From positions 1-64,000 of the forward strand of contig JAHHHO010000002.1 in the NCBI GenBank assembly GCA_019359315.1: a stretch of DNA of 64,000 nt, given 5' to 3'. The DNA is from Myxacorys californica WJT36-NPBG1. GTDB lineage: Bacteria; Cyanobacteriota; Cyanobacteriia; Leptolyngbyales; Leptolyngbyaceae. The first letter of the stretch is position 1. Every line of letters begins with the position of its first letter. Shown here in pieces: positions 3,034-30,436 of the stretch. The notes beneath the pieces were generated by a model that saw only the letters and a list, made by a program, of their open reading frames with translations, did no database searches and was not told the origin of the DNA. A program made the position numbers and the translations under genes.

Positions 3034-5289
3034 TCATCCAATTGACAGTGACCGAGCAAGGAAGAATGCCCACGTGGTGACAATTCCTCCCAACAGATAG
3101 TGAGCAACGCCCACTGCCCGTCCTTGAATAATACTCAACGCACGAGGCTGAATCGCCGGTGCAAATTTGAGCTTATTGTGTGCCCATACAATGGATTCGA
3201 TCAACTCTTGCCAGTAGCCACGACCGCTAAACAAGAACATCAAGCTGAATGCCCAAACAAAGTGAGCGCCCAAGAACAAGAGTCCGTAAGCAGACAGAGC
3301 AGAACCGTAGGAGTTAATCACCTGAGAGGCTTGTGCCCACAGGAAGTCACGCAGCCAACCATTGATCGTGATTGCGCTTTGAGCAAAGTTGCCGTAAGTG
3401 ACATGAGTAACCGTGCCATCAGGAGCAACTGTTCCCCACACATCCGACTGCATCTTCCAACTGAAGTGGAAAATTGCGATCGACAGGGAGTTGTACATCC
3501 AGAACAGACCGAGGAAGACGTGATCCCAACCAGAAACCTGGCAGGTGCCGCCTCGACCCGGACCATCGCAAGGGAAGCGGAAGCCCAAGTTCGCCTTGTC
3601 TGGAACCAGACGAGAGCTACGTGCAAACAGCACACCCTTGAGCAGAATCAGCACCGTCACGTGAATCGTGAAGGCGTGGATATGGTGGATCATGAAGTCT
3701 GCCGTACCCAGCGCCATCGGCATCATGGCAACTTTGCCGCCAACAGCGACCACATCGCCACCAAACACGACAGAAGCAGGTCCTAAAGCGTTGGGAGCGG
3801 TGGCACCAGGAGCCAGCGTATGAATGTTTTGAATCCACTGCGCGAACACTGGCTGGAGTTGAATTGCGGTATCTGAGAACATATCTTGGGGACGGCCCAA
3901 CGCACGCATGGTGTCGTTATGGACGTACAGTCCAAAGCTATGGAAGCCCAAGAAAATACAGACCCAATTTAAGTGAGAGATGATGGCATCGCGGTGACGC
4001 AGGACGCGATCGACGATGTTGTTTTGATTCACAACCGGATCGTAGTCACGCACCATATAAATGGCAGCGTGAGCAGCTCCACCGACGATAAAGAATCCAC
4101 CGATCCACATGTGATGGGTGAAGATCGACAACTGGGTAGCGTAGTCAGTTGCCAAGTAGGGATAAGGCGGCATCGAGTACATGTGCTGAGCAACAATAAT
4201 GCTCAGAGAGCCGACTGCTGCCAAGTTGATTGACAATTGAGCATGCCAAGAAGTGGTTAGGTTCTCATAAATCCCCTTGTGGCCTTCGCCAGTGAAAGGA
4301 CCTTTGTGAGCCTCATGAATTTCCTTGATGCTGTGTCCGATACCCCAGTTGGTGCGGTACATGTGACCGGCAATGATGAACAGCACCGCGATCGCTAAGT
4401 GGTGATGCGCGCTATCTGTCAGCCATAAGCCGCCAGTTACAGGATTCAGACCACCTTTGAAGGTGAGGAAGTCAGCGTACTCACCCCAGTTCAGGGTAAA
4501 GAACGGAACCAAGCCTTTCGCGAAGCTGGGATAGATGTCTGCCATCAGTTGAGGATTCAAAATGAACTCATGAGGCAGAGGAATCCGATCCGCAGGAACG
4601 CCACGATCCAGCAATTCGTTGATGGGCAACGCAACGTGAATTTGGTGTCCTGCCCAAGCCAGCGAACCCAGTCCAAACAGACCGGATAGGTGGTGGTTCA
4701 GCATCGACTCCACATTCTGGAACCACTCCAGCTTAGGAGCGCGCTTGTGATAATGGAACCAGCCTGCAAACAGCATGAGACCAGCCATCACCAGACCGCC
4801 GATAGCCGTCACATAAAGCTGGAAGGTGTTTGTAAAGCCAGCTGCACGCCACAGTTGGAAGAATCCAGAAGTAATTTGAATGCCACGGAAGCCGCCGCCG
4901 ACATCCGCGTTGAGAATTTCTTGACCGAAGATGTCCCACACAACCTGGGCGCTGGGTTTGACTCCTAGCGGGTCGGCGAGCCATGCTTCATAGTTTGAAA
5001 ACTTAGCGCCATGGAAATACATGCCACTGAGCCAGATGAACACGACTGCCAAATGACCGAAGTGAGCGCTAAAGATCTTACGTGAAACGTCTTCTAAGTC
5101 GCTTGTGTGACTATCGAAATCATGAGCGTTGGCGTGTAGGTTCCAAATCCAGGTGGTGGTTTTAGGACCTTTGGATAGGGCGCGATCGAAATGACCCGGT
5201 TGCCCCCACTTCTCAAAAGAAGTTGGAGTGGGATCCTTATCGACGACAACCCGTACCTTTGCCTCACGCTCCGGTGGGCTAATTGTCAT
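3034..5289 (-). CDS. psaA: photosystem I P700 apoprotein A1 (PsaA)
   Basis: PsaA pairs with PsaB to form the photosystem I core. The start is set at [17 protein letters not shown], which matches the usual N-terminus and gives the standard 751 residues. A 14-residue upstream extension of the open frame is rejected because the AGGAGAG Shine-Dalgarno sits just before this ATG. The FX-binding loop [10 protein letters not shown] (about residues 573-583) and many antenna histidine motifs ([33 protein letters not shown]) are intact. The product ends in [10 protein letters not shown]-type sequence. The gene is first in the psaAB operon, and its promoter must lie in the 640-bp divergent region shared with the lipoprotein gene at 5934. 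Confidence 0.98.
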
Positions 5290-27319: not shown

Positions 27320-27661
27320 GGGGGCGTGGCGGAATGGTAGACGCTACGGACTTAGATAAATTGAGCACCTGAGCAGAAATGCTCTGTGTGAATGGAGTCA
27401 AATTCGGTGAACGCTTTAACCTGCCAACGCCGAGCTAAGCTCTAGGTCAATACGTTGTCTCTCAGATAGCGCGTTGCTAGAGAAAGTGTAGAGACTAGAC
27501 GGCTCCTACCTGACTGGTGCAGTGCGCTAAAAGGTAAAGGCATAGTCCAGACTACAAACACGCTTAAGGTGAAACCAACTGAAAGCGTGGTAGTGAAAGC
27601 TACAGTAGTAAGAAAATCCGTTGACCGCAAGGTCGTAAGGGTTCAAGTCCCTTCGCCCCCA
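27320..27661 (+). tRNA. trnL-UAA: tRNA-Leu(UAA) interrupted by a group I intron
   Basis: The exons are 27320-27353 and 27613-27661. They form a 7-bp acceptor stem (GGGGGCG with CGCCCCC, then A) and an anticodon stem ACGGA/TCCGT closing the loop CTTAAAA, giving anticodon UAA. A long variable arm (TTGACCGCAAGGTCG) marks a class II leucine tRNA. The T-loop is GGGTTCAAGTCCC. The interruption lies between U34 and A35 of the anticodon, the position known for cyanobacterial and plastid tRNA-Leu introns. CCA is not encoded. A strong hairpin follows at 27683. Confidence 0.95.
27354..27612 (+). other. group I intron in tRNA-Leu
   Basis: The 259-nt insertion starts after the exon U (AGATAAATTGAGC) and ends with the conserved terminal G before the 3' exon. 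Its small size, position and the presence of P-Q-R-S-like blocks such as AATTCGGTGAACGCTTTAA and GGTCAATACG fit the self-splicing group IC3 introns of this gene. It contains no intron endonuclease ORF of meaningful length. Confidence 0.88.
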
Positions 27662-27682
27662 TATAAACACTTAAAACTCTTG

Positions 27683-27724
27683 AAACTCTGAACTTTTTAC
27701 TGTGAAAAGTTCAGAGTTTTTACT
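27683..27724 (+). terminator. terminator of tRNA-Leu
   Basis: AAACTCTGAACTTTT pairs with AAAAGTTCAGAGTTTTT around a short loop (TACTGTG). The stem is followed by a run of T, 22 nt after the tRNA. Confidence 0.85.
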
Positions 27725-27864
27725 ACTCCTGCATTTTTAATTGTTCTTTAACCTATCTCTTACGGAGATTTACGGAACAAGCACAGCAGCAATGTAGTCA
27801 GGCTTTTTACATCGCAATAGCAACTGTACTTCCATCTAAGCTGTGAAATGAGGATACAAAAATT

Positions 27865-28491
27865 GTGGGACTACAGGGATTTGCTAAATTTCATGAGCTT
27901 CTTAAGCATAATCACCACCCAGCAATGATGGGCTTTGGAACCAAGATTTGTGCAGGAGACATCAATCGATTTGCTAGTAGAATTAAGCTCGCTAAAAACT
28001 TCCGAAGTATCAATCTTGATGAGTATTCGCCATTAACAGTCCTAGGGTACGATGCTTTCTTTCAGGTCTTTCTAACGCATTCTGCCCTAGAAAGATTTCT
28101 TGAAATTTCAGCAGTTCAACTAGATGAACTTGAGGCTTTGATGATGCCATACAAGCCAGAAGAAGTTATTCAGAAGTTCGTGGAAGAAGACAAAAAGAAG
28201 TTGTTATTTGATTTTTTACACGAGCGGTTGAATTTCAGGTTGAGAAATAAATTAAGTGATTGTCGAGACTTGAGCAGTTGCAACGTGGCTTACATTTCTG
28301 CTTCAATTCGGCACATTTTCGCTCATGGTCACTTGTGCGCTCATTCTAAAAGGATGCAGCCGAAAAATGTACATATCATTTGCACGGCAGTTTCGGATTT
28401 TCTACTGAATTTTATGGAAGCCGAATTTGCAAAGAAGATAGAGAACTATCTCGAAGTATTAAGCAATAACCAGACCGATAAAGCTATGTGA
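27865..28491 (+). CDS. unknown protein with HEPN-like R-x4-H motif
   Basis: I do not recognise the family. The 208-residue product is mostly helical and AT-rich in codons compared with its neighbours. Near residues 145-157 it reads ASIRHIFAHGHL, an R149-x4-H154 arrangement like the catalytic Rx4-6H motif of HEPN ribonucleases, set in a hydrophobic helix and followed by Gly-His. Other marked segments are MGFGTKICAGDINRF near the start and LLFDFLHERLNFRLRNKL in the middle. Translation starts at a GTG (27865) with GAGG about 10 nt before. It lies 200 bp after the tRNA-Leu gene and upstream of a toxin-antitoxin pair. RNase activity is only a hypothesis. Confidence 0.6.
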   Translation: MGLQGFAKFHELLKHNHHPAMMGFGTKICAGDINRFASRIKLAKNFRSINLDEYSPLTVLGYDAFFQVFLTHSALERFLEISAVQLDELEALMMPYKPEEVIQKFVEEDKKKLLFDFLHERLNFRLRNKLSDCRDLSSCNVAYISASIRHIFAHGHLCAHSKRMQPKNVHIICTAVSDFLLNFMEAEFAKKIENYLEVLSNNQTDKAM

Positions 28492-28610
28492 TACGAGGGT
28501 TTAGCCGAATTGTGTTTGATCGCAGGCTAATCGGGTCGAGGAGAGTGTTTCTCCGTACGCTCCCATATGATATGTGAAACCTTTAAAGCTTTGATTTCTT
28601 AAACGGTCGG

Positions 28611-28759
28611 GATTTCAGAGTTTTTGTTTAAGTCGTTTCACGATCGAGAATCGCATCGAGCAGTACCTCTGCGCCAAAGCGAATTGGATCGGTGCAAGGC
28701 AATCCTGTTTCCTCTTGAGCCGTTGCGATCGCGCCCGCTACCTTATCCTCATTCAAATG
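28611..28759. repeat. left copy of ~150-bp imperfect direct repeat flanking the TA pair
   Basis: It is similar to 29365-29515 in the same orientation. Long identical blocks are present, for example ATTGGATCGGTGCAAGGCAA, and CAGTACCTCTGCGCCAAA. The segment between the two copies contains only the toxin-antitoxin genes. Confidence 0.85.
28628..28759 (-). pseudogene. remnant of the 3' end of a DUF1611 (DgcN-like) gene
   Basis: On the minus strand the bases from 28759 to the TAA at 28628-28630 encode HLNEDKVAGAIATAQ... and end ...LDAILDRETT. They match the C-terminus of the intact gene at 29384-30436 (HLDQDAALSAIAITQ...LDAILDREGD), with 27 residues identical from QEETGLPC to LDAILDRE. Homology stops abruptly upstream, where TGA lies in frame. 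At DNA level the similar segment also covers ~17 bp past the stop (28611-28627 against 29365-29383). No start codon or other part of the gene remains. Confidence 0.9.
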
Positions 28760-28830
28760 GTTTCAACACTGCTAACCTCCAAGCTATAATTGGTGGTCAT
28801 ACAAGTACGCTCTTGCAACGTGGAGTGCTT

Positions 28831-29052
28831 ATGACCACTCGCTTAGAGGTTGAATCGGCGATCAAGCAACTGCCAAAAGAAGAAGCCCGCAATCTTGCAA
28901 AATGGCTTCAGGAATACCTTGATGAGCTGTGGGATCAGCAAATTGAAGCGGATTTGGCGTCAGGTAAGTTGGATCGCCTGATTGCTCAAGCCGAAGCAGA
29001 CATAGCAAACGGCAATGTGAGAGATTTGGGTGAAGTCCTTCGCAACAGCTGA
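28831..29052 (+). CDS. antitoxin of a type II toxin-antitoxin pair
   Basis: The 73-residue protein begins MTTRLEVESAIKQLPKEEARNLAKWLQEYLDELWDQQIEADLASGKLD and ends with AQAEADIANGNVRDLGEVL. This matches small antitoxins that accompany RelE/ParE-type toxins in cyanobacteria. It is helical and acidic, and the C-terminal part (residues ~45-73) should wrap the toxin. The ATG at 28831 follows GGAG. The open frame extends 69 codons upstream, but that part runs antisense through the DUF1611 remnant and is not used. The toxin start overlaps its end by 23 bp, so the two are translationally linked. Autoregulation by the antitoxin is usual but no operator was identified. Confidence 0.85.
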   Translation: MTTRLEVESAIKQLPKEEARNLAKWLQEYLDELWDQQIEADLASGKLDRLIAQAEADIANGNVRDLGEVLRNS

Positions 29053-29287
29053 TTTTTGGAAAGCGTACGCTGCATTGTCACCCGACATGAAAGAGCAAGC
29101 GCGGAAAGCTTATAAACTTTGGAAGGAAGATTCACTTCACCCCTCGTTGCATTTTAAGAAGGTCGGTAAGAAACTTTGGTCTGCTCGTATCAGTGGTGAC
29201 TATCGAGTTCTGGCTTTGAAAGAGGGTGACGATTACTATTGGTTCTGGATCGGTGAACACGACGAATATGAGAGCCTTTTGAAATAG
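29030..29287 (+). CDS. RelE/ParE-family toxin
   Basis: This 85-residue basic protein has the compact RelE/ParE fold pattern: TADFWKAYAALSPDMKEQARKAYKLWKED (two helices), PSLHFKKVGKKLWSARISGDYRVLALKEGDDYYWFWIGEHDEYESLL (four strands). The phrase SARISGDYRVLALK and the closing WIGEHDEYESLL are typical of this group, which includes ribosome-dependent mRNA nucleases and gyrase poisons. Which activity applies here is not evident. A GTG at 29030 is the start, inside the antitoxin gene. About 100 bp further on lies the converging DUF1611 gene. Confidence 0.88.
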   Translation: MKSFATADFWKAYAALSPDMKEQARKAYKLWKEDSLHPSLHFKKVGKKLWSARISGDYRVLALKEGDDYYWFWIGEHDEYESLLK

Positions 29288-29364
29288 TTGTAGCAAGCCA
29301 TAAAGTCGTTGGAGTGCCGATTTGAGGACTTTGCGCTTCGTTACTCCAGAAGTTTAATGATCAA

Positions 29365-29515
29365 GATTTCGGAGTTTTTTTGTCTAATCCCCTTCACGGT
29401 CGAGAATGGCATCAAGCAGTACCTCTGCGCCAAAACGGATTGGATCGGTGCAAGGCAACCCTGTTTCTTCTTGAGTGATTGCGATCGCACTCAACGCCGC
29501 ATCCTGATCCAAATG
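29365..29515. repeat. right copy of the ~150-bp direct repeat (3' end of the intact DUF1611 gene)
   Basis: It covers the last ~43 codons, stop and following bases of the DUF1611 gene and is repeated at 28611-28759. Recombination between the copies would remove the toxin-antitoxin pair and leave one DUF1611 3' end. Confidence 0.85.
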
Positions 29516-30436
29516 CGCCGTATTTAAAGCAACTCCCGCTACTTTTGCTGGAACAAACGATCCTCCAGCTGCCGCTACTGTTTCATACACCGTCACTACA
29601 TCCTTGAGCGGCGGAATCGATACATGCGAAAAGTTGCGAATCTGGAGTTGCCCAGCCCGATGCACCAAGATCAGATGAGTAGGTTGACTTCCCCGAAGTA
29701 ACGGCAGCGTCGCAGTTGACGCAGGATTAAACAGAGATCCCTGTCCTTCAATGTGCAAAATCTCGTAATTTCTCCCGTGGCGCATCACCAACTGTTCCAC
29801 GGCTCCTGACGCAAAATCGACTCGGACGGCATCTAGCGCAATCCCATCGCCTGCAATCATGATCCCTGCCTGTCCAGTGCCCAGGAAGCGCGATCGCAGT
29901 CCTCGCTTTTGCCCGACGTGATCGAGTGCCAAACTGGTAGACATCTTGCCGACGCTCATATCGGTTCCCACCGTGAGAACTCTTCGACAGGGCAGCGATC
30001 GCGCTTGTCCGCTTCCCACGTTTAAGCCCAGAGGTTCTTGTCGAACATCCCAAATCCACTGCCTCGGTTGAAGCAATTCTTGAAGCTCGGGAAGGTCAGC
30101 TAGACGAGTATGCAAGCCGTTCACAATTGATAAGCCCGATGCGACGGCTTGCTTCAGTTCGGGTAGCCATTGGTCGGGCAATGCTCCGCCAGAGGGCGCA
30201 ATGCCGATCGCAAGAACGTTGGGTTGATAGGCTAAAGCCTCAGAAACTGAGGCAACAATGGGCGCATCACAAGCAATATTCGTCAGCGATCGCAGCGATC
30301 CATGCGCACAGTCTTGGTCAATCACCACTGCGATCGCATCAGAACGAAACCGAATCAGTGCCAGTCCCGTCTTTCCTTGGGTTCCCCGAATTCCTCCGTT
30401 TAGGAGGACAGCAATGCGATCAGTAGACTTCAACAT
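29384..30436 (-). CDS. DUF1611 family protein (DgcN-like)
   Basis: The 350-residue protein has an N-terminal Rossmann-like part (RIAVLLNGGIRGTQGKTGLALIRF...CAHGSLRSL) and a C-terminal P-loop part with the Walker A-like VGTDMSVGKMSTSLAL near residues 168-183, then FLGTGQAGIMIAGDG and HIEGQGSLFNPAS. This is the DUF1611 architecture. Some members (DgcN) have been described as D-glutamate N-acetyltransferases acting with the racemase DgcA; no such partner is nearby, so the substrate here is unknown. It starts 5 nt after the ndhM stop, and so is probably cotranscribed with it. Its last ~43 codons are duplicated at 28628-28759. Confidence 0.9.
   Translation of the reverse strand: MLKSTDRIAVLLNGGIRGTQGKTGLALIRFRSDAIAVVIDQDCAHGSLRSLTNIACDAPIVASVSEALAYQPNVLAIGIAPSGGALPDQWLPELKQAVASGLSIVNGLHTRLADLPELQELLQPRQWIWDVRQEPLGLNVGSGQARSLPCRRVLTVGTDMSVGKMSTSLALDHVGQKRGLRSRFLGTGQAGIMIAGDGIALDAVRVDFASGAVEQLVMRHGRNYEILHIEGQGSLFNPASTATLPLLRGSQPTHLILVHRAGQLQIRNFSHVSIPPLKDVVTVYETVAAAGGSFVPAKVAGVALNTAHLDQDAALSAIAITQEETGLPCTDPIRFGAEVLLDAILDREGD

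What the first reader, a model, noticed from the sequence alone, without database searches (positions are those of the whole stretch)
28611..29515. Toxin-antitoxin pair lies between two copies of a neighbouring gene's 3' end
The last ~43 codons plus a short tail of the DUF1611 gene (29365-29515) recur as a gene-less remnant at 28611-28759, in the same orientation. Only the antitoxin-toxin operon (28831-29287) lies between them. The 27-residue identical stretch shows common origin; the DNA copies differ at scattered, often synonymous sites, so either the event is old or an incoming homologous 3' end arrived with the TA cassette. Recombination between the repeats would excise the TA pair cleanly and restore one gene end. 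This could be a simple, transposase-free way for TA modules to enter and leave a chromosome.
Basis: partly seen in the sequence, partly recalled or inferred. Interest (0 to 1): 0.62.

Follow-up and report, generated by a model that had tools for sequence, protein, structure and literature searches.

The report
Toxin-antitoxin insertion with long target duplication
A small toxin-antitoxin gene pair sits in this cyanobacterial chromosome between two copies of the end of its neighbour gene, and the same signature recurs at many unrelated toxin-antitoxin loci in related cyanobacteria, which suggests that these selfish modules enter chromosomes by an insertion that duplicates about 50-300 bases of the target and uses no transposase of its own.

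Summary
28611-28759 and 29365-29515 are direct repeats (151 columns, 81.5% identical) of the DUF1611 gene's 3' end and tail. Only a ParE-like toxin-antitoxin (TA) pair lies between them. The host is a Myxacorys (its only same-genus relative held is M. almedinensis).

[quoted passage not shown] The two copies are sisters relative to M. almedinensis (bootstrap 92); the remnant evolves about 2.4 times faster, the gene copy mostly at third codon positions.

The pattern is not local. Of 30 loci of this toxin family (window included), 8 are bracketed by different, locus-specific repeats of 56-300 nt; at least 4 of 30 DUF5615 loci are too; the Uma2 control gives 1 of 30. In 2.04 Mb scanned without regard to TA genes, 5 of 7 isolated direct-repeat pairs bracket TA modules (one decayed). 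Two loci have single-copy empty alleles in same-genus relatives.

At the window itself the empty site is confounded: the junction is also a rearrangement breakpoint (inferred ~115-kb inversion). Clean excision today is doubtful (longest identical run 20 nt). The insertion mechanism is inferred.

The parts
28611..28759 (-). Remnant: outer copy of the DUF1611 3' end (about 43 codons, stop and 3' tail), now gene-less; outer target-duplication copy
   Evidence: 81.5% direct repeat of 29365-29515; faster evolution than the gene copy; its 3' tail matches M. almedinensis at 36 of 39 nt
28760..29364 (+). Inserted cassette (605 bp) carrying the TA operon; no terminal inverted repeats, no transposase ORF
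   Evidence: Ends not shared with cassettes of related TA loci and no terminal inverted or direct repeats above shuffled sequence; homology to other TA loci starts at 28772-28830 and stops at 29271-29291
28831..29052 (+). Antitoxin (73 aa, no Pfam, NCBIfam or PHROGs match)
   Evidence: ORF; overlaps the toxin by 23 bp; conserved upstream of the toxin at other loci
29030..29287 (+). ParE-like toxin (85 aa)
   Evidence: PF24732 ParE_like 32.4 bits; up to 90% identical toxins in other genera of the family
29365..29515 (-). Inner target-duplication copy: the 3' end of the intact DUF1611 gene plus tail
   Evidence: Direct repeat of the remnant
29384..30436 (-). DUF1611 (DgcN-like) gene, intact, 350 aa
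   Evidence: PF07755 and PF17396; 88% identical in M. almedinensis

Best explanation
A ~0.6-kb DNA fragment carrying a ParE-like TA operon was captured at the 3' end of the DUF1611 gene by an insertion that duplicated at least 150 bp of target (insertion with long target duplication). The gene kept one copy of its end. The other copy, cut off from the gene body, decays as a remnant. The cassette has no transposase and no conserved ends, so the joining was probably done by host DNA repair, for example capture of a fragment at a break with long overhangs that were filled in on both sides. Such duplications should be unstable because recombination between direct repeats deletes the insert. Those carrying TA modules persist because a cell that loses the module is poisoned by the longer-lived toxin. 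This retention would explain why isolated direct repeats in these genomes so often bracket TA modules. Shown here: the repeat, its sister relation and asymmetric decay, recurrence with locus-specific repeats, and single-copy empty alleles at two other loci. Inferred: the repair mechanism and retention by addiction.
For: (1) Repeat and TA content. (2) Gene and remnant are sister (UFBoot 92), with M. almedinensis next (81); remnant branch 0.165 against gene 0.070. Polarised by M. almedinensis (from the site list), gene-only changes are 4 of 5 at third positions and remnant-only changes 7 of 11 at first or second positions. (3) Same toxin family: 8 of 30 loci bracketed by locus-specific repeats of 56-300 nt, 78-94% identical. 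The repeats include the 3' end of PEP carboxylase in G050 and a stretch running into the start of an ABC-transporter gene in G013. (4) Other TA families: DUF433/DUF5615 at the cobK 3' end in M. almedinensis (161 nt, 90%); PIN and antitoxin at the adenosine deaminase 3' end in G006 (95 nt, 92%); a Gp49-like and HTH_37 pair in G006 (56 nt, 88%). DUF5615 sample: 4 of 30 with isolated repeats. (5) Scan of 2.04 Mb: 7 isolated pairs, 5 bracketing TA modules. (6) Empty alleles: G000:C53:55775-56381 for cobK and G022:C1:4628954-4629516 for the G013 locus are contiguous with one copy. At cobK the two copies are 90.6% identical to each other and 71-73% to the empty allele. (7) At the adenosine deaminase end the duplication is held by G006 and G033 while G021 and G029 gave one match each; in G033 it encloses three PIN TA pairs with nested repeats.
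Against: No empty allele exists at this exact junction: in M. almedinensis DUF1611 is next to ftsH on another contig. Gene-remnant divergence (16%) is close to gene-almedinensis divergence (15%), so the sister relation rests on ~105-130 nt. Remnant substitutions are unevenly spread, which simple neutral decay does not predict; gene conversion may have acted. About three quarters of same-family TA loci show no detectable repeats, so other routes or older events must exist. The Uma2 control differs from the TA samples only at p about 0.02-0.04. TA function was not tested.
Confidence: 0.77

Rival explanations
1. Homology-facilitated illegitimate recombination: incoming DNA from a related TA-bearing strain carried its own DUF1611 3' end. 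It recombined by homology inside the gene and joined by chance outside, so the present gene end is foreign and the remnant is the old native end.
For: In the conserved block 7 of 7 gene-remnant differences are at third positions, as if both copies had diverged under selection. The remnant tail is closer to M. almedinensis than the gene tail is. Natural-transformation precedents are cited in PMC2884548.
Against: Gene and remnant are sister and share the derived AEVLL. Gene-almedinensis identity shows no step at the 3' end. The donor would already need the TA beside the same gene, so the first insertion stays unexplained. At cobK both copies are equally far from the empty allele.
Confidence: 0.13
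2. By-product of the large rearrangement: the tRNA-Leu|DUF1611 junction is a breakpoint, and the duplicated gene end was made by the rearrangement rather than by TA insertion.
For: The junction is a breakpoint relative to M. almedinensis (tRNA-Leu is followed there by a different ParE-like TA and an ABC-transporter block; DUF1611 by ftsH). Staggered-break inversions can make duplications.
Against: Inversion-associated duplications end up inverted at the two far breakpoints; here the copies are direct and 606 bp apart. No DUF1611 end lies at the other breakpoint. TA loci elsewhere show the same bracket without any evident rearrangement at the empty-site pairs.
Confidence: 0.06
3. The TA pair is a cassette of a known mobile type (integron gene cassette, composite transposon or IS).
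For: TA genes do occur in attC-like arrays in these genomes (G022 1-2453, L206).
Against: The repeats are host gene ends, unique to each locus, without attC-like ends. There is no integrase or transposase between the copies and no terminal inverted repeats.
Confidence: 0.03

Closest known systems
Insertion with long target duplication of restriction-modification systems (Nobusato et al. 2000, Gene 259:99; Furuta et al. 2010; both known here only through papers that cite them: PMC3874152, PMC3031569, PMC1643837)
   Same: A selfish addictive module lies between long, variable (order of 100 bp) direct duplications of the target, with no transposase of its own; reported as linked to inversions or translocations
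   Different: Here the inserts are type II TA modules of several unrelated families in cyanobacteria, 0.5-3.6 kb, and the copies have diverged by 6-22%
ParE/ParD-like TA of Microcystis aeruginosa PCC 7806 fenced by two identical 152-bp direct repeats (PMC7935541)
   Same: RelE/ParE-type TA pair with a long direct repeat on each side in a cyanobacterium
   Different: One locus; the paper's text holds none of the words mobile, horizontal or transpos*; its repeats are identical and carry a 16-bp inverted repeat; no empty site or recurrence reported in the passages read
Integron gene cassettes carrying TA pairs
   Same: Small TA units between repeated sites, gained and lost by recombination
   Different: Repeats here are locus-specific host gene ends, not attC sites

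Membership tests
Insertion with long target duplication | Insert flanked by direct repeats of tens to hundreds of bp that derive from the target | tested here: met
   Window repeat is the neighbour gene's own 3' end; cobK, adenosine deaminase, PEP carboxylase and ABC-transporter gene parts elsewhere
Insertion with long target duplication | Empty allele in a relative with a single target copy | tested here: inconclusive
   Met at two other TA loci; at the window the relative has one DUF1611 end but a rearranged junction
Insertion with long target duplication | Duplication made in the lineage that holds the insert | tested here: met
   Gene and remnant sister, UFBoot 92 on 105 nt; cobK copies 90.6% to each other and 71-73% to the empty allele
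Insertion with long target duplication | Insert is a restriction-modification system (original cases) | tested here: not met
   Insert is a ParE-like TA pair; therefore filed as a TA variant that works like it, not as one of the original RM cases
Type II TA of the ParE/RelE superfamily | Toxin profile match and adjacent small antitoxin gene | tested here: met
   PF24732 above cut-off; 23-bp gene overlap; the antitoxin has no profile match
Type II TA of the ParE/RelE superfamily | Toxin inhibits growth and antitoxin neutralises it | not testable with these tools
   Needs expression assay
Integron cassette | attC-like recombination sites at both borders | tested here: not met
   Borders are coding ends of DUF1611 without attC-like ends; judged by reading, no attC model was run
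Transposon or composite IS | Transposase and terminal inverted repeats | tested here: not met
   No such ORF; end complementarity at shuffled level

The most novel reading that the evidence does not exclude
Long-target-duplication insertion is a general entry route for chromosomal type II TA modules of unrelated families in these cyanobacteria, and the persistence of isolated long direct repeats there is largely explained by addiction: only inserts that punish their own loss keep their repeats, so the repeats mark TA modules and could serve to discover new ones.
Probability: 0.5. Interest if true: 0.76.

Novelty: new variant of a known kind. Interest (0 to 1): 0.6.

Why it matters
TA modules are called mobile, yet how a bare two-gene module enters a chromosome is mostly unexplained. 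Here a recurrent and datable insertion signature links TA modules to the long-target-duplication pattern known for restriction-modification systems. It suggests that addiction preserves insertions that recombination would otherwise erase. It also gives a homology-free way to look for new TA modules (what lies between isolated direct repeats) and predicts a test: deletion between the repeats should be rare unless the antitoxin is supplied in trans.

Tried and rejected
Rejected: (a) chance repeat. (b) Remnant as part of an unrelated conserved gene: its only homologs are DUF1611 ends. (c) Integron cassette or transposon. (d) tRNA-Leu as integration site: the gene is whole, with a group I intron, and is not repeated at the insert. 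Led nowhere: outgroup gene order around DUF1611 is not conserved, so the rearrangement could not be polarised. ARAGORN and Rfam at gathering thresholds missed the intron-bearing tRNA. The toxin has no PDB relative by sequence. One further M. almedinensis locus (C84:73047) has no counterpart in the window's genome. An M. almedinensis pair at C16:2419/3474 first looked like a target duplication, but its 85-nt repeat is dispersed over dozens of genomes and has attC-like ends. The G022 pair at 302/2038 lies in a repeat array and was left out. Furuta et al. 2010 is not in the library.

Full report
WHAT IS THERE. The window is part of contig C90 (177 kb) of a 5.97-Mb cyanobacterial genome. The reported repeat is real: 28611-28759 and 29365-29515, 151 aligned columns, 81.5% identical. 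The right copy is the 3' end of an intact DUF1611/DgcN-like gene (29384-30436, minus). The left copy encodes the same last ~43 codons with its own stop and no gene body. The 605 bp between hold an antitoxin (28831-29052) and an overlapping ParE-like toxin (29030-29287, PF24732).

WHICH COPY IS WHAT. Codon-level comparison with M. almedinensis gives gene-remnant 20/123 differences, gene-almedinensis 18/123 and remnant-almedinensis 24/123. Reading the site list against M. almedinensis, changes private to the gene are 4 of 5 at third positions, and changes private to the remnant are 7 of 11 at first or second positions. Both copies share the derived AEVLL where M. almedinensis and most relatives have ADxLL. 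A maximum-likelihood tree of 31 ends (105 nt) puts gene and remnant together (UFBoot 92), M. almedinensis next (81), with a longer remnant branch (0.165 against 0.070). So the remnant is best read as a decaying duplicate made after the split from M. almedinensis. One irregularity remains: changes in the remnant are concentrated in its inner 45 nt, so gene conversion of the rest, or a diverged donor patch, is possible.

THE JUNCTION IS ALSO A REARRANGEMENT BREAKPOINT. In M. almedinensis trpA-DUF3007-ndhL-tRNA-Leu(UAA) is followed by a different ParE-like TA (59% identical toxin) and an ABC-transporter/gltX block, and DUF1611 is followed by ftsH on another contig. In the window's genome ftsH lies at C90:144266. 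The adjacencies fit an inversion of about 115 kb plus a nested 11-kb one (inference). Outgroups do not conserve this order, so the direction is unknown. A clean empty site therefore cannot be shown here.

THE PATTERN IS GENERAL. Testing 30 loci of the same toxin family, 8 (window included) are bracketed by direct repeats, each of a different, locus-specific sequence: 79 nt around a GNAT gene and the TA in G006, 101 nt 94% in G010, 101 nt in G013, 96 nt in G015, 56 nt in G037, 156 nt in G056, 300 nt covering the PEP-carboxylase 3' end in G050. In 30 DUF5615 loci, 4 have isolated repeats and 2 more have arrays or dispersed repeats. In 30 Uma2 control loci only one, a three-copy dispersed repeat, was found (Fisher p 0.02 for the toxin family, 0.04 for both TA families).

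SCAN NOT GUIDED BY TA GENES. In 2.04 Mb from six genomes plus short stretches, asking only for direct repeats of at least 45 nt and 75% identity with a 300-2000 nt gap and no array, 7 pairs present exactly twice were found. Five bracket TA modules: the window; DUF433/DUF5615 at cobK in M. almedinensis; PIN and antitoxin (with a GNAT gene) at adenosine deaminase in G006; a Gp49-like and HTH_37 pair in G006; and a decayed PIN pair in M. almedinensis C84 (PIN only at E=0.004, below its cut-off). The other two are an attC-like cassette and a coding stretch in G000 C92 that looks paralogous (judged by reading). If a random interval held a TA module with probability 0.01-0.05 (an assumed range; TA density was not measured), 4 of the 6 pairs other than the window would have probability 1.5e-7 to 9e-5.

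EMPTY ALLELES. A query that joins the outer flanks with one repeat copy matched without interruption at G000:C53:55775-56381 (cobK locus of M. almedinensis) and at G022:C1:4628954-4629516 (the G013 locus) (alignments). At cobK the copies are 90.6% identical to each other and 71-73% to the empty allele, so the duplication is younger than the species split. At the G013 locus the copies are 79% identical, and the empty allele is 80% and 74% identical to them, so that duplication may be as old as the split and G022 may either never have had the insert or have lost it. At the adenosine deaminase end, G006 and G033 both hold the duplication while G021 and G029 gave one match each. In G033 the copies (167 nt, 86%) enclose three PIN TA pairs and further nested repeats.

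HOW IT MOST LIKELY WORKS. Shown: long, variable duplications of target around TA modules, no conserved cassette ends, no transposase, no terminal inverted repeats, several unrelated TA families. Inferred: a fragment carrying a TA operon is captured during host DNA repair with fill-in of long overhangs; the duplication tends to leave neighbouring genes whole; recombination between the copies would normally delete the insert, but cells that lose it are killed or arrested, so TA inserts persist until the copies are too different to recombine. In the window the longest identical run is now 20 nt, so excision by homologous recombination is expected to be inefficient.

WHAT IS KNOWN. [quoted passage not shown] also PMC3031569, PMC1643837). 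PMC3874152 says this for some RM systems; in the passages found it treats TA systems as mobile without this mechanism. A search for TA together with 'target duplication' gave 14 papers, none of which describes it for TA loci as far as titles, abstracts and the passages read show. One TA locus of Microcystis is known to be fenced by identical 152-bp direct repeats (PMC7935541) and is probably another case. Hence: new variant of a known kind, with a recurrence that appears not to have been reported. The library holds only open-licence papers.

LIMITS. The host-repair mechanism and retention by addiction are not shown. TA assignment of inserts rests on profiles and gene arrangement. The control family is small.

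Noticed in passing
27321-27661 (+): tRNA-Leu(UAA) interrupted by a group I intron (RF00028, 49.7 bits against a gathering score of 50); ARAGORN and Rfam at gathering threshold both miss it.
   Followed up: partly
27663-29383 against L084 (G001 C16:11925-12923): In M. almedinensis a different ParE-like TA pair (59% identical toxin) lies just downstream of the same tRNA-Leu; the window junction is one end of an inferred inversion of about 115 kb.
   Followed up: partly
27865-28491 (+): Orphan 208-aa ORF without Pfam, NCBIfam or PHROGs match; relatives at 31-36% identity in only three of 58 genomes.
   Followed up: partly
L092 (G001 C16) 2419-2503 and 3474-3558: 85-nt repeat with attC-like ends (GCATAAC...GTTATAC), present in dozens of the related cyanobacterial genomes and here bracketing a single dioxygenase-like gene: looks like a scattered integron-type cassette. 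No attC model was run.
   Followed up: no
L137 1-2453 (G022) and L206 (G014): Arrays of long repeats with GCTAAC/GTTAGC ends carrying PIN or DUF5615 TA genes; possible chromosomal integron-like arrays.
   Followed up: no
L257 2026-5882 (G033): Nest of three PIN-type TA pairs inside one duplicated adenosine-deaminase gene end, with nested 49-57 nt direct repeats: repeated TA insertion at one site.
   Followed up: partly
28794-28801 and 28831-28838: 8-bp perfect inverted repeat GTGGTCAT/ATGACCAC just upstream of and over the antitoxin start, a possible autoregulatory operator (seen by eye only).
   Followed up: no
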